Source of the DNA: Bryobacterales bacterium F-183
Lineage (GTDB): Bacteria; Acidobacteriota; Terriglobia; Bryobacterales; Bryobacteraceae
Direction: 5' to 3'
Assembly (NCBI GenBank): GCA_016865505.2
Contig: AP025252.1
Location: 4,424,137 to 4,488,136 of the forward strand
DNA length: 64,000 nucleotides
Shown here one piece after another: positions 1 through 36,506 of the stretch. The first letter of the stretch is position 1; the number at the start of each line of letters is the position of its first letter. Made by a program: the position numbers and the translations under genes. The notes beneath the pieces were generated by a model, which did no database searches, was not told the DNA's origin, and saw nothing but the letters and a program-made list of their open reading frames with translations.

Positions 1-833
1 CAGCGCTATCCTCATCGGATCGAGCGCGATCCTTGAGCAAGGGCAAGATGTCGGGATCGTCCTTCCAGCCGCGCGCCAACTCCTCCACCGCCGCTTGCCG
101 CACAGCGCTATCCTCATCGGAGCGAGCGCGATCCTTGAGCCAGGGCAAGGTGTCGGGATCGTCTTTCCAACCGCGCGCCAACTCGCGCAGTGCCGCTCGC
201 CGGCCAAATTCGTCTTCATCGCAGCAAGCGAAATACTTGAGCAAGGGCAAGGTGTCGGGATCGTCTTTCCAGCCGCGCGCCAACTCCCCCACCGCCGCTC
301 GCCGGACTGCGGAATACTCATCGGAGCGAGCGCGATCCTTAAGCAAGGGCAAGGTGTCGGGATCGTCTCTCCAGCCGCGCGCCAACTCCTGCACCGCTGC
401 TAGCCGGACAGCGTACTTGTCGTCGGAGCGAGCGCAATCCTTAAGCCAGGGCAAGGTGTCGGGATCGTCTCTCCAGCCGCGCGCCAACTCCTGCACCGCC
501 GCTAGCTGCATAGCGAAACTGCCATCGACGCGAGCGCAATCCTTGAGCCAGGGCAAGGTGTCGGGATCGTCCTTCCAGCCGCGCGCCAACTCCTGTACCA
601 CCGCTAGCTGTACAGCTAAACTGTCGTCGACGCGAGCGCGATCCTTGAGCAAGGGCAAGGTGTCGGGATCGTCTCTCCAGTCGCGCGCCAACGCCAGTAC
701 CGCCGCTGCCCGGACATCGCCGTCTTCATCGGAGCGAACGCGATCCTTGAGCAAGGGCAAGGTGTCGGGATCGTCCTTCCAGCCGCGCGCCAACTCCTGC
801 ACCGCCGCTTGCCGGAGAATCGAGCCACTCCCG
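1..833 (-). repeat. Tandem array of 102-bp (34-codon) repeats encoding HEAT-like units
   Basis: The marker TCGGGATCGTC recurs at 51, 153, 255, 357, 459, 561, 663 and 765, a spacing of exactly 102 bases, so eight complete units are visible and the array continues beyond base 1. The coded consensus includes ELARGWKDDPDTLPLLKD. Bases are nearly identical between units. Changes cluster at a few codons: the residues between SDED and the following AA, and LLKDR versus WLKDC. Such arrays change copy number by recombination, and the variable positions are candidates for a recognition face. Confidence 0.93.
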
Positions 834-3028
834 GCGTCTGCGAGGGTGTTCTGCAGCCACGGCTTTGATTCGGATGGCCAAATGGAGATGTAGAGGCTGA
901 CACCTGCGCGCCGTGTTGTGCCCACCTCTTCCTCGGACATCCACCGATCATAGTAGTAGGGCGGATCATAGGACACCACTTTGGCGAGCACAGCATTCCG
1001 TACCGTGGACTCGATGGAGGATAGTCCGGCGCGGTTCCGGATCTCATTTAGACACTCACCGGCTAACAGTACGTTCGATTGCCGGTAATCTCGCCCATCT
1101 TGCTGGAGCAACACCTTGATCAACTCGGCGGCATGATTTTGCTCGACCAGGCCTGCGATGAGCCGGAGAACCTCATGCCAGCGTTCGTTCTTCCAGCGCG
1201 TGGTGAAGAGATCCTTCAGCGGCTCAAGGTTCAGTTCTTTGTTGAGCCTCTTGTGCCAGGCGTCCGCGCAGTAAAACTCGAGGAACGTGCGATGTACAAA
1301 GCCCAGCCGGTTACCGCCGGCCGCACATAGAATGAAGTTTCGCTCCATGAGTTGGGCGAGCAGCTTTTTCGCTCCTTGGCGAGGGTCGATGTGCTTCTTT
1401 TCGGTAAGGTATTCGTGAAATAACCTCTTCAGGTCCTCGCTTGTGACCACGTTGCCTTCCAAGCCCCCGGCTGTGTCCTGCATCTTGTTTGCGAGGCGGC
1501 GGAGCAGTTCTTCCTTCTCTTCGCGATCAAAATCCGAGCCAAGTGCCAATCGAGCGTCCCAGTCATGCAACAGAACGCGGCTTGCTTCGCGGTACAACTC
1601 AACGCGATCGCGCGGGAGTTCCTGATTTCGATTCAGGATTGCCATCATCGTCAACAAAAGCGGATTGCCCGTGAGCGAACGGACAGCGCGGGAACGTTCA
1701 ATGGCCACAGTCATTCGCTGCTGCAGCCTGTGCTGCTCCTTTGGATCTGGTTCGGCGACCTTGTGCCACAGTTCTACGAACTCCGGCACCTGCTTTTCAT
1801 CGAAATCCTCCAGCGTGGCGTGGCGGAATCCGGCGTTGCGGAGACGTTCTGGCTCATAGCCGATGATCCGCGTGGTCACTACGATCTTGGCGGTGCTGTA
1901 GCGGGCTGCGATTCCCTCGATCTGCTGGATTACGCCATTGCGCAGGCCGATGTCGAAAATCTCGTCGAGTCCGTCGATGTAGAGCGTCGCGTTGCCCGCC
2001 TTGAGACGTTCATGGATCTGGTTCGCATCCAGCGCGAAGCCAGACCGATCGGAGGACAGGTAGGCGAGCAGGTCCAGAGCCTCATGCCGGTTCGCTTCGG
2101 CGAACTCGCGGAGCTCGATCCAAAGCGGCACGGAATTTTTGTCATCGGGCTTCGCTGCTTGCTTCAGCCATTGATAGAGACACTGCTTCAGAAGCGACGA
2201 TTTGCCAGAGCCAGGATCGCCAGCGATTACGACCAGACGCTCACGTCCCAGAATCTCAAGGACGGGTCCCGACGGGCTCTCTCGATAGCTGCGGCACAGG
2301 TCCTGGTACTGAGCCTCAGTGGGTTCCCCGCTGATGTGGCCTTCTTCTTTGAGCTGCTTCCAGACTTCTCGCGGGAGGCTTGGGGCAGGCACCGATTCGC
2401 GGGCGTTCTGCGCGACGAAGACGCTCCAGAGTTCGATCTTACGGTCGTAAGCGGTTTTGTGAAGGGTCGCCAGCGAAAGGGACCGGCAGCGACCATGCAG
2501 GAAAGTACGATATCCGGCAAGGTCGAAACCGAGATCCGGCCCGGCTATCCGCTTTTGCAGCTCAGTCTGCTGTTCGAGTAGGGCAGTGTTAAGTTTCTCT
2601 CGAAGATCTGGCGTATTTCTGACGTATTTGCCCACCTCCCTTCCGAATTTCTTTTCGACAATTTCCCAATCAAAATCTTCGGGTAGAGGCGGGTAATGAG
2701 GTGAGGTCCACATGTCGCCGACCAAATGGAGGTCGACAGCACCAGGTTCAGGTTGCAGCCAGCACGTGATGAACGGTGCAGCGGTTTCAACAAATCGAAT
2801 GAGGAGTTGGCGATAGCCGTCCATCGCAAACTCAAAGCCCGTCTCGTTGAGTTCCTCAAGAAAAGCCTTCGTAAATAACTCTGCAGCCTTCTTCGCCGCT
2901 TCCTCTTGCTGAGTTGGTTGCAGTAAGCGGGTGAGGTTCTTGATACCTTTTGGGCCATGCTCCTCAACAAGGTTCAGGCAAACTTCGCGCCAGTTGACAC
3001 CTGAAATTACTTCGCGGACCTCCGGCAT
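1..3028 (-). CDS. NACHT-family STAND NTPase with C-terminal HEAT-like 34-aa repeats (3' end beyond window)
   Basis: A minus-strand reading frame stays open from an ATG at 3028 to the window edge (about 1009 residues) and has no stop inside the window. Around residue 267 it has a Walker A loop (GDPGSGKSS), around residue 350 a Walker B of NACHT type (LYIDGLDEI), then a VVTTR sensor-like motif, NPLLLTMMA and a winged-helix motif FVHRTFLEFYCA. From about residue 730 it becomes a tandem array of 34-residue HEAT-like units. This order (N-terminal region, NACHT, repeats) is that of bacterial NLR-like STAND proteins, several of which are antiphage sensors; the ligand here is unknown. GGAG is 6-8 bases before the ATG at 3028, favouring it over the ATG at 3034. 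The next gene downstream is outside the window. The NACHT assignment is secure; a defence role is inferred. Confidence 0.88.
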   Translation of the reverse strand, partial: MPEVREVISGVNWREVCLNLVEEHGPKGIKNLTRLLQPTQQEEAAKKAAELFTKAFLEELNETGFEFAMDGYRQLLIRFVETAAPFITCWLQPEPGAVDLHLVGDMWTSPHYPPLPEDFDWEIVEKKFGREVGKYVRNTPDLREKLNTALLEQQTELQKRIAGPDLGFDLAGYRTFLHGRCRSLSLATLHKTAYDRKIELWSVFVAQNARESVPAPSLPREVWKQLKEEGHISGEPTEAQYQDLCRSYRESPSGPVLEILGRERLVVIAGDPGSGKSSLLKQCLYQWLKQAAKPDDKNSVPLWIELREFAEANRHEALDLLAYLSSDRSGFALDANQIHERLKAGNATLYIDGLDEIFDIGLRNGVIQQIEGIAARYSTAKIVVTTRIIGYEPERLRNAGFRHATLEDFDEKQVPEFVELWHKVAEPDPKEQHRLQQRMTVAIERSRAVRSLTGNPLLLTMMAILNRNQELPRDRVELYREASRVLLHDWDARLALGSDFDREEKEELLRRLANKMQDTAGGLEGNVVTSEDLKRLFHEYLTEKKHIDPRQGAKKLLAQLMERNFILCAAGGNRLGFVHRTFLEFYCADAWHKRLNKELNLEPLKDLFTTRWKNERWHEVLRLIAGLVEQNHAAELIKVLLQQDGRDYRQSNVLLAGECLNEIRNRAGLSSIESTVRNAVLAKVVSYDPPYYYDRWMSEEEVGTTRRAGVSLYISIWPSESKPWLQNTLADAGSGSILRQAAVQELARGWKDDPDTLPLLKDRVRSDEDGDVRAAAVLALARDWRDDPDTLPLLKDRARVDDSLAVQLAVVQELARGWKDDPDTLPWLKDCARVDGSFAMQLAAVQELARGWRDDPDTLPWLKDCARSDDKYAVRLAAVQELARGWRDDPDTLPLLKDRARSDEYSAVRRAAVGELARGWKDDPDTLPLLKYFACCDEDEFGRRAALRELARGWKDDPDTLPWLKDRARSDEDSAVRQAAVEELARGWKDDPDILPLLKDRARSDEDSA

Positions 3029-3075
3029 TTGCATTTCTCCAGGATAAATGCAAGGCCGGAACTTAATTGGAGGAC

Positions 3076-3867
3076 TTACTGAATCGGACGCCGCTCCGGA
3101 ATGCGGAACTCCAGGCCACGCTCCTCATTCAACCGCATCGAAAACGAGCGATCCACACGATCCAGCGACACGCGATTATGGTCGCTATCCCGCGTGATGT
3201 AGTTCAGCGTGTCATCCTCCACCCAGTACGACAGCGCCGGCATGATGTTCCCATCCTTCATCGCAATCAAAAAGATGGTCGGCTTGTCGTCCTGCTTCGG
3301 CAGGTTCTGATACACCTTCAGCGACGACTCCTGCTGTTGCTGCTGCTGAGACGGAGCAGGCAAATTCGTGTACTCGCGGACCTGAGGGTTGATCGTATCC
3401 GGCTGATACGCCTGATTGATGATCACCACCGGAGGCTGCTGGGCGACCGGTTCAACCGGCATCGTGACGGGCGTCGAAGCGTAAAACGGATCATACCCAT
3501 AACCGAAACCACCGCCAAACACCGGAACTGCATAAGGAAGAATAATCGTCCGCTGCGGTTGGCGTCCACCGCGATAGTTGCCGTACCCGAACCCAGGGCG
3601 CCCCGGCGCGACACCACCGTAGTTGGGCGGCACACCACGCACCGTCGCACCCAACGCCGTCGCATGACCCGGTACGCCACCAGGAAACAAGGAATTACCA
3701 AAGCCCGCAGGAGAAATACCGTAGGAACGCGGTGCCGGAGGCGCGACGATGACTGGACCGCCCCCTCCTCCTCCACGCATTCCACCACCACCGCCACGCT
3801 GCGCAAGCGCGCTAGGAACCGCAACAACCATCAACATCGTGAAGAGCAAAAACCGTTGCTTCGTCAT
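3076..3867 (-). CDS. Exported glycine- and proline-rich protein of unknown function
   Basis: 263 residues starting MTKQRFLLFTMLMVVAVPSA, a clear Sec signal peptide with cleavage likely after ALA (residues 20-22). The mature protein opens with glycine-rich runs (RGGGGGMRGGGGGG), continues through a Gly/Tyr/Pro-rich middle (residues 45-140) and a short polyglutamine run (about 174-179), and ends in a more ordered 75-residue domain with KPTIFLIAMKDGNIMPALSYW and a repeated R-x-S-x-D pattern. That end resembles a small beta domain seen in acidobacterial exported proteins, but I cannot name a family. It lies between the NACHT gene and the beta-propeller gene on the same strand, with 45 bases to the latter, so it may be co-transcribed with it. 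The start follows AGGTCC at a short distance. Confidence 0.75.
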   Translation of the reverse strand: MTKQRFLLFTMLMVVAVPSALAQRGGGGGMRGGGGGGPVIVAPPAPRSYGISPAGFGNSLFPGGVPGHATALGATVRGVPPNYGGVAPGRPGFGYGNYRGGRQPQRTIILPYAVPVFGGGFGYGYDPFYASTPVTMPVEPVAQQPPVVIINQAYQPDTINPQVREYTNLPAPSQQQQQQESSLKVYQNLPKQDDKPTIFLIAMKDGNIMPALSYWVEDDTLNYITRDSDHNRVSLDRVDRSFSMRLNEERGLEFRIPERRPIQ

Positions 3868-3912
3868 GATACGGACCTCCCAGTCACTCTCTGCTCAGAG
3901 AGTACCACTCGA

Positions 3913-31601: not shown

Positions 31602-34600
31602 ATGCCGCCGGCCGAACAATACCTAACAACACCACGCGCTTTATATTTGAGCACCCCGCTTGGGAGCGACAAGCTCTTGCTCAAAACCTTCTCCGGCTAC
31701 GAGGCAATTTCTGAGCTCTACCGTTACCAGTTGGAAATGCAGGCCAAGAATGAGACCGCTGTCAACTTCGACCAGCTCATTGGCAAGGACATTTCCTTCG
31801 GCCTCAACCCAGGCAAGCCAGGCAAACCGGCACGCCATTTTTCAGGCATTTGCATTGAGCTTTCCCGCGGTACCCAAGGCACTGAACTCACCGAGTACAG
31901 CATGGTGGTGGTGCCCCGCATCTGGACCCTCACCCAGAAGTACCGCAGCCGTATCTTCCAGCAGATCACCGTCCCCGACATCCTCCGCATGGTCTTCACC
32001 GGCGTCGATGTCGAATACCAGCTCGACGCGACCTACGAACAGCGCGAATACTGCGTCCAGTACCGCGAAACGGACTTCGACTTCGCCAGCCGTCTGATGG
32101 AAGAAGAGGGCATCTACTACTACTTCAAGTTCACCCCCGGCGCCCAAAAACTAATCGTCACCGACAAGGAACGCCTCACCGTTCCCGTCGAAGATTTCCC
32201 AACCATCAAATTCGACCCCATGGGCGGCGGCGGCGAAGGCGAAACCGAAGAGATGCGCATCTCGGACTTCCGCCGTACCCAAACCTGGCGCAGCGGCAAA
32301 GTCACACTCTGGGACCATCACTTCCAGCTCCCCCACCGCCATCTCGAATCCGAGAAACAGGTCATCGACACCGTGCAGGCCGGCACCGTCAGCCATAAGC
32401 TCAAGCTCAACGGCAACGATGCGTTCGAGATCTACGATTACCCCGGCGACTACGCCAAGTTCTTCGACGGCATTAACAAATCCGGCGGCGAACAGAACGA
32501 CAAGCTCAACAAGGTCTTTACCGACAACCGTCGCATCACGCAGATCCGCATGCAGCAGGAAGAAGCGCAAATGCTGCTGATTCTCGGCGCCAGCGACTGC
32601 CGCCAGCTTGTCCCAGGCTTCAAGTTCGACCTCCAGGAACACTTCGACGGCAACGGCGCCTACATCGTCACCAGCGTCTCGCACACCGCGCGCGAAGGCG
32701 GCTACCGTTCCGGCGAAGACCAATCCAGCTTCTACGAAAACACCTTCACCTGCATCCCCCAGGCCTTGAAGTTCCGCCCCACTCGCCGTACCCCCAAGGC
32801 CCGCATGGCCGGCTGCCAGACCGCTGTTGTCGTAGGCCCCGGCGGCGAGGAGATCTTCACCGACAAGTACGGCCGCGTCAAAGTCCAGTTCCACTGGGAT
32901 CGAGACGGCCGCAACGACGCCGACTCCTCCTGCTGGCTGCGCGTTGCCACCCATTGGGCGGGTAAAAACTGGGGAACCATCTTCATCCCCCGCATGGGCA
33001 TGGAAGTTTTGGTCGACTTCCTCGAAGGCGACCCAGACCGTCCCATCATCGTCGGCGCGCTCTACAACGCCCAGGAAATGCCGCCCTACACTCTGCCCGA
33101 CAACAAAACGCAGAGCGGCATCAAGTCCCGGTCGTCCAAACAAGGCTCCAACGACAACTACAACGAACTTCGCTTTGAAGACAAAAAGGGCGAAGAAATG
33201 ATCACGTTCCATGCCGAAAAGGACATGGAACGCGAGGTCGAACACGACGACCGCATCGACATCGGTAACGACCAGAAGTTCGACGTCCACCACGACCGCA
33301 CCAAAACCGTCGACAACGACGAAAAGGTGGAGATCAAGAACAACCGCACCAACAAGATCGGCCAGAAGCACCAGGAAGAAATCGGCGGCGATCATCTTCA
33401 GGACGTGAAGATGAACAAGAAGGTCAAGGTCGGCCAGAACTACAACGTCGAAGCCGGCATGAATATGACCATCAAGGCCGGCATCGGATTGAACATTGAG
33501 TCCGCCATGTCGCTGACCTTGAAAGCCGGCGGAAGCTCCATCCAGATCAACCCGGGCGGTATCCAGATCGCTGGCACCCCGATGCTGATGCTCAACTGCC
33601 CCGGCGCACCTCCGCCTCCGATCGCCCCGGTAATCATCCCGCCGCTGATGTCTGCGATGGCCGCGCCGGCTACCAATGCTCCCGCTGCCCCCGCGGCGCC
33701 AGCAGCACCATCGGCTCCCTCCGCACCATCGGCGCCATCGGCTCCCTCTGCCCCCTCCATGCCATCCGTACCCCCAATGCCCGCCATGCCCGATCCCGGC
33801 GCGATGGCATCGCAGGTGACGGATATGGTCGGCGCTGCCCTCGAGACCGGAACAAACGTCCTCAGCAACATGGCCAACACCTTCATGGATCAGGTCACCG
33901 CCACGGCCCAGACCCTCATGAACGGGGCGACTCAGGCAGGTGCAGCCGCAGCGGCAGCCGCCGGACAGGTCGTCAACCAGGTCGAGCAGGCCGTGAACGA
34001 GGCCAAGGAACAGATCCAGGACGCAGTTGAGGACGCCAAGAGCCAGGTCGAAAACGCAGTCAACGAAGTCCAGAACCAGGCCAATGAGGCCCTCGCGGAC
34101 GTAGCCGAGGGCGTCGCGGACCTGCAGAATCAGGCCACGCAGGCCCTTGATCAGGTCCAAGGCCAGTTGCAAGACGCTGCCGCTCAGGCCCAGCAGCTCG
34201 CCAATCAGGCGATGGAGCAAGGCCAGGAGGCGCTCGCTCAGGCCTCGCAGGCTGCCAACGAGGCTGCACAGCAGGCGCAGGAAGTCGCTTCCCAGGCTCA
34301 GCAACAGTTGCAGGAAGCGGCCGAACAGGCACAGCAGATCGCGCAGGACGCCCAGCAACAGGGACAACAGGCGCTCAACGCCGCGTCCCAACAGCTGAAC
34401 GCCGTCGCCCAGCAAGGCCAGCAGGCCGCAGCAGCAGCCCAGCAGGCCGCAACGCAAGCCGCCGCAGCCGCACAGCAGATGGCCCAGCAAGCCATGGCGG
34501 AAGCACAGGAACAAGCCACCCAAATGGCGAACCAGGCTGCCCAGGCAGCGCAAGCCGCCCAGCAGCAGGCACAGCAAGCCGCCGCAGCCGCACAGCAAGC

Positions 34601-34940
34601 CGCATCGGACGCTGCCAACAACGCCCAGCAGATGGCCCAGCAAACCCAGCAACAGTTGCAGGACGCCACCCAGCAGGCCACCCAGCAGGTACAGCAGGCT
34701 GCCGAACAGGCCGCCCAGCAGGTCGGACAAGCCGCACAGCAAGCTACCCAGCAGGCCGCGCAGGCTGGACAGATGGCCCAGCAGCAGGCCCAACAGGCTG
34801 GCCAGCAGATCGCCAACTCCGCGACCCAGGCTGGCGATCAGGTCGCCAAGACCGCGGATCAGGCCTTCAGCCAGGTCGGCAACACCGCCGATCAGGCCGC
34901 GCAGGGCGTGCAAAACGCATTCAAGGGATTGGGGGCATAA
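31602..34940 (+). CDS. vgrG: T6SS spike protein VgrG with long Ala/Gln-rich C-terminal tail
   Basis: 1112 residues. Residues 1-380 are the gp27-like hub (STPLGSDKLLLKTFSGYEAI near the start, YCVQYRETDFDFASRLMEEE). Residues 385-480 form the OB-fold (KYGRVKVQFHWDRDG, WAGKNWGTIFIPRMGMEVLV, GDPDRPIIVGALYN). A gp5-like beta-helix with repeated V-E/K-x-x motifs follows to about 660. A proline/alanine hinge (APAAPAAPSAPSAPS) spans about 665-740. The final 370 residues are dominated by Ala and Gln in patterns such as QAAQQAQQ, with no recognisable enzyme fold. The protein forms the trimeric needle on the Hcp tube. The tail is far from standard VgrG size (600-700 residues) and is matched by a similar tail in the adjacent PAAR protein. 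Confidence 0.95.
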   Translation: MPPAEQYLTTPRALYLSTPLGSDKLLLKTFSGYEAISELYRYQLEMQAKNETAVNFDQLIGKDISFGLNPGKPGKPARHFSGICIELSRGTQGTELTEYSMVVVPRIWTLTQKYRSRIFQQITVPDILRMVFTGVDVEYQLDATYEQREYCVQYRETDFDFASRLMEEEGIYYYFKFTPGAQKLIVTDKERLTVPVEDFPTIKFDPMGGGGEGETEEMRISDFRRTQTWRSGKVTLWDHHFQLPHRHLESEKQVIDTVQAGTVSHKLKLNGNDAFEIYDYPGDYAKFFDGINKSGGEQNDKLNKVFTDNRRITQIRMQQEEAQMLLILGASDCRQLVPGFKFDLQEHFDGNGAYIVTSVSHTAREGGYRSGEDQSSFYENTFTCIPQALKFRPTRRTPKARMAGCQTAVVVGPGGEEIFTDKYGRVKVQFHWDRDGRNDADSSCWLRVATHWAGKNWGTIFIPRMGMEVLVDFLEGDPDRPIIVGALYNAQEMPPYTLPDNKTQSGIKSRSSKQGSNDNYNELRFEDKKGEEMITFHAEKDMEREVEHDDRIDIGNDQKFDVHHDRTKTVDNDEKVEIKNNRTNKIGQKHQEEIGGDHLQDVKMNKKVKVGQNYNVEAGMNMTIKAGIGLNIESAMSLTLKAGGSSIQINPGGIQIAGTPMLMLNCPGAPPPPIAPVIIPPLMSAMAAPATNAPAAPAAPAAPSAPSAPSAPSAPSAPSMPSVPPMPAMPDPGAMASQVTDMVGAALETGTNVLSNMANTFMDQVTATAQTLMNGATQAGAAAAAAAGQVVNQVEQAVNEAKEQIQDAVEDAKSQVENAVNEVQNQANEALADVAEGVADLQNQATQALDQVQGQLQDAAAQAQQLANQAMEQGQEALAQASQAANEAAQQAQEVASQAQQQLQEAAEQAQQIAQDAQQQGQQALNAASQQLNAVAQQGQQAAAAAQQAATQAAAAAQQMAQQAMAEAQEQATQMANQAAQAAQAAQQQAQQAAAAAQQAASDAANNAQQMAQQTQQQLQDATQQATQQVQQAAEQAAQQVGQAAQQATQQAAQAGQMAQQQAQQAGQQIANSATQAGDQVAKTADQAFSQVGNTADQAAQGVQNAFKGLGA
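33834..34920 (+). repeat. Low-complexity Ala/Gln coding repeat, VgrG tail
   Basis: About 360 codons built mostly from CAG/CAA, GCC/GCA and related codons. The first third is mixed with E, N, D and V (QVEQAVNEAKEQIQDAVEDA), then it turns into almost pure Q/A blocks with occasional M, T and S. It predicts a long amphipathic or coiled-coil helix, not a globular domain. Irregular units rather than exact copies suggest slow divergence rather than a fresh expansion. Confidence 0.8.
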
Positions 34941-34946
34941 CCAGCC

Positions 34947-36506
34947 ATGCCCCCCATGCCAGCGTCGCGCGTCGGCGACATGCACGTCTGCCCGATGGTC
35001 ACCCCGGGCGTACCTCCCATCCCGCACGTCGGCGGTCCGGTGCTCCCTCCCGGCGGCGTTACGGTTCTCATCGGTGCCATGCCCGCTGCCCGCGTCAGCG
35101 ACATGTGCGTCTGCGTCGGTCCTCCTGATGTCATTGCCATGGGCTCGGTCACCGTCATCACCATGAACATGCCGCAGGCCCGCATCATGGACCCTACGGC
35201 ACACGGCGGCATGTTGGTTGTCGGATGCCCCACCGTCATCGTGGGGGACTCGGCCTCGCCCGCGCCCCCTGGAGCTCCCATCGTTTCCGTACCCGGCATG
35301 CCAGCGGTACCGCCGCTTCCCGCGCTGCCCCCGCTGGACCTCCCGCCGATCCCGCTCCCTTCCGTCCCGCCGATCCCGGGCTTCCAGCCTGCGCCGATCC
35401 CGCCGTTCCCCCAGCTGCCGCCATTCCCCAACGTGGCGTCGTACACGTCACAGCTCATGTCCCAGGCCTCCGGAGCCATGAGCCAGGCCCTCGGCAACCT
35501 CCAATCGATGGCGAACAACGTATCGAACGCCGCCGCCGGAGTCGCCGCAGCCGTGCAGGACGCTGCAGCGGCAGCCGCCGCACAGTTTGACCAGGCGTTG
35601 AACCAGATTCAGGAAACGGCAGAGCAGGCAATCAACAACGTCAGCGACGCCGCGCAGGGCGCCATCAACCAGGCTTCCAGCCAGATCTCCAGCCTCGCCA
35701 ATCAGGCCGCCGCGACCGCCAATGCCGCACAACAGCAGGCCGCCGCTACCGTACAGCAACTCACCGACGTCGCAAACCAGGCCGTGGCAGCAGGCGACGC
35801 GGCACTAGCCAAAGCCGCAAATCAGGCTGCCCTCGCGATGAACCAGGCGCAGCAAACCGCAGCCCAGGCGCAGCAGCAACTCCAGCAGGCCGCTGGACAG
35901 GCCCAGCAGATGGCGCAACAGGCCGCCGCCCAGGGTCAGCAAATGGCCAATCAGGCCGCACAGCAGGTCAACCAGACCCTCGCCGCCGCACAGCAAACCG
36001 CAGAAGCCGCGGCCGCGCAAGCTCAGCAAGCGGCCCAACAGGCGCAGCAGGTCGCACAACAGGCCGCGCAACAGGGTATGGCAGCGGCGCAGCAGCTACA
36101 GCAACAGGCCCAGCAGGCCGCTGCCGCAGCGGGACAAGCGGCGGACCAGGCAGCGGCTGCAGCACAAGCGGCTGCCGCAAACGCGCAACAGCAGATGCAG
36201 CAGACCCAGCAGCAGGCCCAGCAGGCCGCTGAACAGGCCGCGCAACAGGTTCAGGCTGCCTCACAACAGGCGGCCAATCAGGTCAGTCAGGCCGCCCAGC
36301 AGGCAGCAGAAGGTGGCTCGCAAGCGGCGCGCGATGCTGCCAATCAGGCGCAGGAAATGGCGCAACAAGGTGCCAACCAGGCTAGCCAGGCGGCTCAGAA
36401 TGCCGCGGATCAGGCAGAACTCGCAGGTCGGCAAATGGCGCAAAACACCCAGAACGCCATGAACAATCTGCCCAAGCCCCCGTCGGGCCCTCCCAAGCTG
36501 TTTTGA
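34947..36506 (+). CDS. PAAR-domain spike tip protein with Ala/Gln-rich tail
   Basis: 519 residues. Residues 1-100 are a PAAR domain: MPASRVGDMHVCPMVTPGVP at the start, GGPVLPPGGVTVLIG, AARVSDMCVCVGPPDVIAMG and ITMNMPQARIMDPTAHGG, with the expected His/Cys metal ligands. A proline-rich stretch (about 105-165, PLPALPPLDLPPIPLPS) follows, then about 340 residues rich in Ala and Gln, very like the VgrG tail, and a short end NLPKPPSGPPKLF. PAAR sharpens the VgrG tip and carries effectors, but no toxin domain is visible. It starts 6 bases after vgrG. Confidence 0.92.
   Translation: MPPMPASRVGDMHVCPMVTPGVPPIPHVGGPVLPPGGVTVLIGAMPAARVSDMCVCVGPPDVIAMGSVTVITMNMPQARIMDPTAHGGMLVVGCPTVIVGDSASPAPPGAPIVSVPGMPAVPPLPALPPLDLPPIPLPSVPPIPGFQPAPIPPFPQLPPFPNVASYTSQLMSQASGAMSQALGNLQSMANNVSNAAAGVAAAVQDAAAAAAAQFDQALNQIQETAEQAINNVSDAAQGAINQASSQISSLANQAAATANAAQQQAAATVQQLTDVANQAVAAGDAALAKAANQAALAMNQAQQTAAQAQQQLQQAAGQAQQMAQQAAAQGQQMANQAAQQVNQTLAAAQQTAEAAAAQAQQAAQQAQQVAQQAAQQGMAAAQQLQQQAQQAAAAAGQAADQAAAAAQAAAANAQQQMQQTQQQAQQAAEQAAQQVQAASQQAANQVSQAAQQAAEGGSQAARDAANQAQEMAQQGANQASQAAQNAADQAELAGRQMAQNTQNAMNNLPKPPSGPPKLF
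35430..36440 (+). repeat. Low-complexity Ala/Gln coding repeat, PAAR tail
   Basis: About 335 codons of Ala/Gln-dominated sequence (QQAAQQAQQVAQQAAQQ and similar), more mixed at the start with S, N and I. Composition, block pattern and length correspond to the tail of the preceding vgrG gene, suggesting duplication of one module onto both proteins or convergent expansion. Confidence 0.8.

What the first reader, a model, noticed from the sequence alone, without database searches (positions are those of the whole stretch)
1..3028. NLR-like NACHT NTPase with a fast-evolving 34-residue repeat array
Seen: NACHT motifs followed by at least eight 102-bp units of near-identical DNA. Differences are concentrated at a few codons (around SDED-xx-xR and LLKDR/WLKDC), which suggests recent duplication and conversion with a variable face. 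Known: bacterial NACHT proteins include antiphage sensors, and HEAT-type repeats can be ligand-binding solenoids. Inference: this is a candidate immune sensor whose specificity changes by repeat turnover. The gene appears on no simple start-to-stop listing because it runs off the window edge.
Basis: partly seen in the sequence, partly recalled or inferred. Interest (0 to 1): 0.7.

Follow-up and report, generated by a model that had tools for sequence, protein, structure and literature searches.

The report
Bacterial NLR-like gene, changing HEAT array
A bacterium carries a gene built like an animal or fungal immune receptor, with an ATP switch in the middle and a tail of copied 34-residue units whose number differs strongly from that in its nearest relative, so it may show how bacteria retool infection sensors by copying repeats, although no phage defence has been tested.

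Summary
On the minus strand, window 3034 to 2 is an open frame whose stop lies 398 bases outside. Pfam finds NNH2, NACHT and HEAT_2 above cut-off. The 102-bp units share one frame and are 74.5 to 90.2% alike in DNA, so 'near-identical' is too strong.

Units are most like units of their own array in 40 of 43 cases. Variation sits at the same unit positions (28-31, 34, 4) in three arrays from different families. A plasmid homologue joins the same repeats to SIR2; another lies beside Hma defence genes.

Against the strong reading: held-out pN/pS at the variable positions is 1.74 here (interval 0.83-4.30), 1.04 and 0.64 elsewhere, so diversifying selection is not shown. Within-species polymorphism, ligand and antiphage activity are untested.

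Best reading: a NACHT/STAND sensor of the bacterial NLR-related type whose HEAT array evolves by unit turnover, as in some fungal NLRs. New variant of a known kind.

The parts
2..3034 (-). Coding sequence, 5' 1011 codons of an open frame that continues outside the window and ends at L003:9603 (1143 codons in all if the 302-N run has its true length)
2459..2953 (-). NNH2 domain (NACHT N-terminal helical domain 2), residues 28-192, in the effector position
   Evidence: PF22734 78.4 bits, cut-off 27
1760..2239 (-). NACHT NTPase domain, residues 266-425
   Evidence: PF05729 39.8 bits, cut-off 26.7
2198..2221 (-). Walker A, GDPGSGKS, residues 272-279
   Evidence: translation; GDPG.GKS invariant in five aligned homologues
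1961..1984 (-). Walker B, LYIDGLDE, residues 351-358
   Evidence: translation; DGLDE invariant in five aligned homologues
809..1759 (-). Helical region between NACHT and the array, residues 426-742
   Evidence: mostly helical in the whole-protein model, at low confidence up to about residue 710
2..808 (-). HEAT array: seven complete 34-codon units and 31 codons of the eighth; unit 1 = 808-707, each next one 102 bases lower
716..727 (-). Hypervariable codons 28-31, unit 1
614..625 (-). Hypervariable codons 28-31, unit 2
512..523 (-). Hypervariable codons 28-31, unit 3
410..421 (-). Hypervariable codons 28-31, unit 4
308..319 (-). Hypervariable codons 28-31, unit 5
206..217 (-). Hypervariable codons 28-31, unit 6
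104..115 (-). Hypervariable codons 28-31, unit 7
2..13 (-). Codons 28-31 of unit 8 (cut by the window edge; not in the counts)

Best explanation
This is a one-gene STAND (NACHT) sensor of the bacterial NLR-related type. At rest the NACHT ATPase would be held off by its own C-terminal half. The C-terminal HEAT solenoid would bind an infection cue (a phage product or a disturbed host component); this would free the ATPase to exchange nucleotide and oligomerise, and bring together the N-terminal NNH2 domains, which would start or recruit a toxic response. The sensing array lies between a conserved body and a conserved C-terminal cap and changes by gain, loss and homogenisation of 102-bp units, which keeps the helical frame constant while the inter-unit loop and part of the next helix vary. 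Shown here: the architecture, the HEAT fold by prediction, the shared variable positions, the different unit number in congeneric orthologues, the homogenisation, the exchange of the N-terminal module (NNH2 or SIR2), and defence neighbours in two relatives. Inferred from other STAND proteins: ligand binding, oligomerisation, toxicity, antiphage role.
For: Domains NNH2, NACHT and HEAT_2 above cut-off. A related body (38.5% identical) and the same kind of repeats follow SIR2_2 on an Azotobacter chroococcum plasmid. An NNH2-NACHT-HEAT gene on a mobilizable Gloeocapsa plasmid lies beside genes scoring as HmaB and HmaC. In G318 the homologue (NNH2, body 38.2% identical) has a TIR-pentapeptide neighbour with a sub-threshold NACHT match. 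Patchy occurrence: NNH2 in 2 of 297 Acidobacteriota genomes in an even draw that includes the window's own; two further carriers, SZAS-8 and G049, were not in that list of matches. Entropy along the unit agrees between three arrays (rho 0.54, 0.56, 0.80) and the true register ranks first of 34 circular shifts each time. Array model pLDDT 80.9; matches to importins, alphaRep and other HEAT/ARM solenoids. A profile of five homologues has one PDB match at E 0.001 or better: NLRC4, E 0.00017, around the P-loop, no single stretch passing on its own.
Against: The best PADLOC match is weak (PDC-S60, E 7.2e-05, 19.1 bits), and the NCBIfam antiphage model EruA scores 39.4 against a cut-off of 1000. Defence genes around the window's own gene were not searched for systematically; its neighbours read to me as metabolic or secreted, and the upstream 263-aa protein has no Pfam match. 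The G049 neighbours also read as housekeeping. The gene keeps the same chromosomal neighbourhood in two congeneric genomes, unlike a fresh arrival. No match to the array in 50,697 phage records, which is neutral. Held-out pN/pS gives no proof of diversifying selection and its interval lies below 1 in G318 (0.46-0.89). One more distant array, on a Streptomyces anulatus plasmid, does not share the window's pattern (rho 0.12).
Confidence: 0.6

Rival explanations
1. The variation is passive. The array is a structural or autoinhibitory solenoid; unit number drifts by unequal crossing-over, and exposed positions vary because they are little constrained. It may still be an immune sensor, but the repeats do not retune its specificity.
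For: Held-out pN/pS at variable positions 1.04 (0.71-1.63, G049) and 0.64 (0.46-0.89, G318), and 1.74 with interval 0.83-4.30 here. Positions 28-31 are the loop between units and the first turn of a helix in the model, where any HEAT protein might vary. The variability moment at 100 degrees is not above shuffles for helix A (p=0.39) and only marginally for helix B (p=0.08).
Against: The same few positions stand out in three arrays whose bodies are only 33-38% identical. In the window's array the held-out positions have a similar pS to the rest (0.214 against 0.179) but four times the pN (0.372 against 0.089).
Confidence: 0.4
2. A STAND regulator of something other than defence, such as development, stress response or transcription.
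For: STAND proteins include transcription regulators (established knowledge; also stated in a passage of PMC7159879). The gene is kept in one neighbourhood, next to a gene I read as inositol-phosphate synthase, in two congeneric genomes. Its upstream same-strand neighbour ends 41 bases before its start.
Against: No DNA-binding family above its Pfam cut-off; N-terminal module exchanged with SIR2; relatives on plasmids and beside defence genes; gene order around it is not kept even within the genus.
Confidence: 0.2
3. The difference in unit number is an assembly artefact: short reads collapse or break such arrays.
For: The window's array touches a 302-N run and the G318 array has three 100-N runs. 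Short-read assemblies of comparable fungal NLR arrays are unreliable (PMC12222747, passages). SZAS-8 is a MAG.
Against: The two full SZAS-8 units differ strongly from each other (64.7% DNA identity), so they do not look like a collapsed array, and the gene there is complete to a stop and a cap like the one here. The eight units in the window are sequenced without gaps.
Confidence: 0.12
4. A diversity-generating retroelement writes the variable codons.
For: DGRs diversify sensor domains fused to NACHT or nSTAND1 in other bacteria (PMC10907252, passages). Five of seven codons at position 30 have the form NNC.
Against: The only reverse transcriptase found in the genome by RVT_1 lies about 1.78 Mb away, reads QGAPTSP and scores highest with the PADLOC models RT_other and RT_outgroup (retron). 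Third positions of variable codons change as well (codon 29: GAC, GAT, AGT, TAT, AAG). The DGR motif rules used are recalled.
Confidence: 0.02

Closest known systems
Bacterial NLR-related NACHT proteins (bNACHT family; EruA in NCBIfam)
   Same: NACHT core, N-terminal effector-position module, C-terminal sensor-position region; the EruA model's best stretch is residues 322-610. The bNACHT work I saw as passages of PMC12169576.
   Different: Far below the EruA cut-off (39.4 of 1000 bits); no antiphage test; the sensor is an array of closely related HEAT units.
Fungal NLRs with high internal conservation (het-d/het-e WD40; ANK, TPR and HEAT NLRs)
   Same: NACHT or NB-ARC plus repeats; for WD40 concerted evolution, number polymorphism and a few variable positions per unit (PMC1805685 and PMC4986451, passages).
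   Different: Bacterial, HEAT units. Mean unit identity 70.7% in protein misses the 85% used to define the fungal class. Positive selection was shown there for WD40, ANK and TPR units, not here. The fungal TPR and ANK sites map almost all to the concave face; here the strongest lie in the loop between units and on helix A.
Bacterial WRAP beta-propellers on STAND proteins
   Same: Recently amplified repeats at the C-terminus of a bacterial STAND protein, with turnover attributed to innate immunity (PMC9218822, passages).
   Different: WD40 propeller with near-identical blades, gene coupled to a TIR-STAND gene; here a HEAT solenoid in a single gene.
DGR-diversified NACHT sensors
   Same: NACHT protein with a variable C-terminal sensor (PMC10907252, passages).
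   Different: C-type lectin sensor mutated by a reverse transcriptase; here repeats, and no DGR-type reverse transcriptase found.
alphaRep artificial HEAT-like binders
   Same: Fold match (4zv6, Z 16.9, 265 residues at 6.2 A; 6fsq and 7q1f); idealised helical repeats with a few randomised positions that give binders (PMC3754942, passages).
   Different: Designed; bA3-2 binds with its concave face that carries the randomised positions. That these sit on the second helix is recalled.

Membership tests
NACHT/STAND NTPases | NACHT domain with Walker A and Walker B | tested here: met
   PF05729 39.8 bits, cut-off 26.7; GDPGSGKS and LYIDGLDE, core invariant in five homologues
NACHT/STAND NTPases | ATP-dependent oligomerisation | not testable with these tools
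   needs biochemistry
NNH2 (PF22734) | NNH2 domain above the curated cut-off | tested here: met
   78.4 bits, cut-off 27
HEAT repeat proteins | HEAT repeats by profile and paired helices in an alpha solenoid | tested here: met
   HEAT_2 177.1 bits, cut-off 27.7; predicted helices, pLDDT 80.9; importin, alphaRep and other HEAT/ARM matches, Z up to 17.7
Bona fide NLR (leucine-rich repeats) | LRR sensor | tested here: not met
   no LRR family among the 15 Pfam matches at E up to 1
EruA antiphage protein (NCBIfam NF058535) | score above the equivalog cut-off | tested here: not met
   39.4 bits, cut-off 1000
Bacterial NLR-related antiphage proteins | protects against phage | not testable with these tools
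   needs phage challenge
NLR with high internal conservation (definition in PMC4986451) | repeats over 85% identical over at least 100 residues | tested here: not met
   mean 70.7% in the window's array; for comparison 85.3% over four units in the Azotobacter relative
NLR with high internal conservation | units group by array, not by position (concerted evolution) | tested here: inconclusive
   for: nearest neighbour in the same array for 40 of 43 units; against: in the tree only G049 and Azotobacter units form clans, the window, G318 and SZAS-8 units do not
NLR with high internal conservation | repeat number varies | tested here: met
   between species only: 2 plus cap against 11 plus cap in same-genus orthologues; within one species not testable here
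NLR with high internal conservation | positive selection at variable positions | tested here: inconclusive
   held-out pN/pS 1.74 (0.83-4.30), 1.04 (0.71-1.63), 0.64 (0.46-0.89)
DGR target protein | DGR reverse transcriptase in the genome | tested here: not met
   single RVT_1 match in the genome, retron-like; genome 98.6% complete
DGR target protein | template repeat with A-to-N mismatches | not tested
   no template search was run

The most novel reading that the evidence does not exclude
A bacterial counterpart of the fungal het-d/het-e mechanism: one NACHT gene that makes new recognition specificities by gain, loss and homogenisation of a 102-bp HEAT unit between fixed ends, with selection on a ridge formed by the inter-unit loop and helix A rather than on the usual concave groove, and with the effector end exchangeable (NNH2 or SIR2) across phyla.
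Probability: 0.27. Interest if true: 0.72.

Novelty: new variant of a known kind. Interest (0 to 1): 0.45.

Why it matters
How bacterial STAND sensors change what they recognise is open. Routes in print that I saw are recognition of conserved phage proteins by C-terminal sensors and DGR mutation of lectin sensors (passages of PMC10907252). A sensor that changes by unit copying, with one frame, conserved ends and a defined set of variable codons, makes the question testable: unit number and content can be read from strains and swapped in the laboratory. It also warns that such arrays can be broken or misreported in short-read assemblies.

Tried and rejected
DGR origin of the variable codons: rejected on the type of the only reverse transcriptase found; RVT_1 was also searched in four relatives (matches in 3 of 4, none in the same-genus G001), types not followed.

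Positive selection: first counts on positions chosen from the same data looked strong (ratio 1.84); when positions were chosen from the other two arrays the signal did not hold. I rest on the second.

Local duplication order: adjacent units are not more alike than random pairs (window and G049 only).

Direction of the change: I first wrote that the array had expanded here. The calls do not show it; loss in SZAS-8 fits as well, since G049 and G318 have long arrays.

Generality: the Streptomyces anulatus plasmid array has positions 4, 30, 31, 34 among its ten most variable but correlates weakly with the window (rho 0.12, rank 13 of 34), G049 (0.24) and G318 (0.25); S. avidinii correlates with G049 and G318 (0.60, 0.57), less with the window (0.27). 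One of the 14 S. anulatus picks is the P-loop, a false unit that was left in that count. The S. avidinii protein has HEAT_2 but no NACHT at E 0.001. Azotobacter, with four units, gave rho 0.32 to 0.46, rank 2 or 3 of 34. A Streptomyces FR1 protein gave only two weak picks and was left out of the correlations.

Units dropped before counts: the window's partial eighth unit, one 33-residue unit of G049, G318 units that contain N or are not 34 long and its divergent first one, the first divergent Azotobacter unit, and the caps. The far end of the G318 array was not counted.

Phage and viral collections: no phage match to the array at E 1e-5; two viral-contig loci with 24% NACHT similarity only. 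The genome-contig scan returned two loci: SZAS-8 and a 29% NACHT match. Solved structures by sequence: none for the whole protein at E 0.1 or the array at E 1.

Whole-protein structure model: mean pLDDT 50.6, not used beyond the array and the helix outline.

Mapping onto alphaRep: the variable alphaRep positions come from PMC3754942, but its consensus residues, and so the statement that our strongest positions lie off the concave face, rest on my recall and on helix boundaries; no coordinates were available.

Papers: seven searches. In their listings and in the passages I opened I found no description of bacterial NACHT-HEAT arrays with unit turnover; the library lacks most subscription papers, and Kibby 2023 was not held.
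Full report
What is there. The window is G000:C1:4424137-4488136 of a 6.28-Mb genome in four contigs. The minus-strand frame from 3034 runs off the left edge and ends at L003:9603, 398 bases outside the window; the whole frame is 1143 codons if the 302-N run has its true length. Pfam finds NNH2 (residues 28-192), NACHT (266-425) and six HEAT_2 stretches. It is the only NNH2 match in the genome; the only other match to the body there is a SIR2-NACHT-NCH2 protein at 24% identity. Among 61 genomes searched as relatives, the own one included, 17 match the body at E 0.001 and 8 the array; outside G000, only G001 and G049 match the body over most of its length.

The array. Eight units start exactly 34 codons apart. 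The consensus is AAVQELARGWKDDPDTLPLLKDRARSDEDSAVRL. Codons 6-8, 10 and 12-18 show neither a residue nor a codon change in seven units; codons 28-31, 34 and 4 are the main variable ones. From residue 743 to 1143 there is room for 11 full units and a 27-residue cap, most of three units lying in the N-run. In the window's gene and in three other arrays the last, incomplete unit reads W-[KR]-x-D-P-[DQ]-V (SZAS-8, G049, Azotobacter). AlphaFold2 on the array alone (one sequence) gives mean pLDDT 80.9, with helices at unit positions of about 30 to 8 and 14 to 26. Foldseek and VIA-align give HEAT and ARM solenoids: transportin and importins, Integrator chains, Vac8, alphaRep. Best Z is 17.7 at 7.1 A over 305 residues; for repeat proteins Z under about 13 can be common arrangement, so this supports the fold and no function.

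Orthologue and turnover. The same-genus orthologue has 834 residues, 71% identical over the body, with two full units and a cap. Those two units are 64.7% alike in DNA, while units within the window's array average 82.4% and window-to-SZAS-8 units 68.0%. Nearest neighbours lie in the same array for 40 of 43 units from five arrays; the three exceptions are one G318 unit and both SZAS-8 units, whose nearest unit is W1, the unit next to the body. In the tree only the G049 and Azotobacter units form clans (0.98, 0.999); window, G318 and SZAS-8 units do not. This fits gain or loss of middle units between conserved ends, with homogenisation; it does not say which lineage changed, and part of the signal is weak because units are short.

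Shared variable positions. G049 (same order, 1284 aa, 33% body identity, 15 full units and a cap) and G318 (same phylum, 38% body identity, an array broken by three 100-N runs) have units of the same length. Shannon entropy along the unit correlates: window-G049 0.54, window-G318 0.56, G049-G318 0.80, and the true register is the best of 34 circular shifts in each case. Ranked together, positions 30, 29, 31, 28, 34, 4, 26, 25, 23, 19 lead. In the model these are the loop between units, the first turns of helix A, and part of helix B. Two Streptomyces plasmid arrays follow the pattern only in part.

Selection. With the ten positions chosen only from the other two arrays, pN/pS is 1.74 in the window (codon bootstrap 0.83-4.30), 1.04 in G049 (0.71-1.63) and 0.64 in G318 (0.46-0.89); for the remaining positions it is 0.49, 0.31 and 0.37. 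So the variable positions are less constrained than the rest, and diversifying selection is possible in the window's array but not shown.

Context. On the Azotobacter plasmid a related NACHT body and repeats follow SIR2_2. On a mobilizable Gloeocapsa plasmid the homologue (NNH2 217.3 bits) sits near proteins scoring 1134.6 bits for HmaC (next gene) and 873.3 for HmaB. In G318 the neighbour is a TIR-pentapeptide protein with a sub-threshold NACHT match. NNH2 occurs in 2 of 297 Acidobacteriota genomes in an even draw, the window's included; the G049 array as query matched 3 of 396 at E 1e-12. The window's own surroundings look metabolic to me, so the defence context is borrowed from relatives.

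Comparison with print. Fungal NLRs with concerted repeats, number polymorphism and positive selection are described in PMC1805685 and PMC4986451, whose gene set includes HEAT arrays (passages). Recently amplified propellers on bacterial STAND proteins are described in PMC9218822 (passages), DGR-diversified NACHT sensors in PMC10907252 (passages), conflict systems with STAND domains and with HEAT and TPR repeats in PMC7159879 (passages). The present case would combine the fungal mode of evolution with a bacterial NACHT protein and HEAT units. By the 85% definition of the fungal class the window's array does not qualify (70.7%); the Azotobacter array, over four units, averages 85.3%.

Verdict. 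A real NACHT-HEAT sensor-type gene, intact as far as sequenced, with an array whose unit number differs from that of its congeneric orthologue. Probability that it is an immune-type sensor about 0.6; that unit turnover adaptively changes its specificity about 0.27. It is a new variant of a known kind.

Noticed in passing
L003:8157-13034 against L025 (reversed): The NACHT gene lies after the inositol-phosphate synthase-like gene here, but between that gene and its DUF192-like neighbour in SZAS-8, same orientation. In SZAS-8 the heptamer GCTTGAT occurs on both sides of the NACHT gene. Gene names are my reading of the translations.
   Followed up: partly
L003:9699-10000 and L048:3223-3322, 3510-3609, 3783-3882: N-runs inside these arrays: 302 N here, three of 100 N in G318. 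Such arrays seem to break assemblies.
   Followed up: partly
L060:3127-3772 (G005:C28): Two fragments of a related NNH2-NACHT body in different frames (35.6 and 36.8% identity), perhaps a decayed copy in a same-family genome.
   Followed up: partly
G000:C1:2639329-2639919 (L042): A retron-like reverse transcriptase (329 aa), best PADLOC models RT_other and RT_outgroup.
   Followed up: partly
G000:C1:1175967-1176980 (L005): A SIR2_2-NACHT-NCH2 protein elsewhere in the same genome.
   Followed up: no
L039:8509-10329 (G005): A 606-aa protein with units much like these HEAT units (HEAT_2 24.4 bits, below cut-off) and no NACHT match.
   Followed up: no
L048:8330-14000 (G318): TIR protein with a weak NACHT match and pentapeptide repeats, followed by a 525-aa protein without Pfam match and another frame with pentapeptide repeats: a possible defence cluster.
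   Followed up: partly
window 34406-36064: Several short repeats rich in CAG and GCA units (periods 12-33) within two large ORFs.
   Followed up: no
G429:C1:1728924-1729475: A further match to the G049 array at 31% identity in a 990-aa frame in the same class.
   Followed up: no
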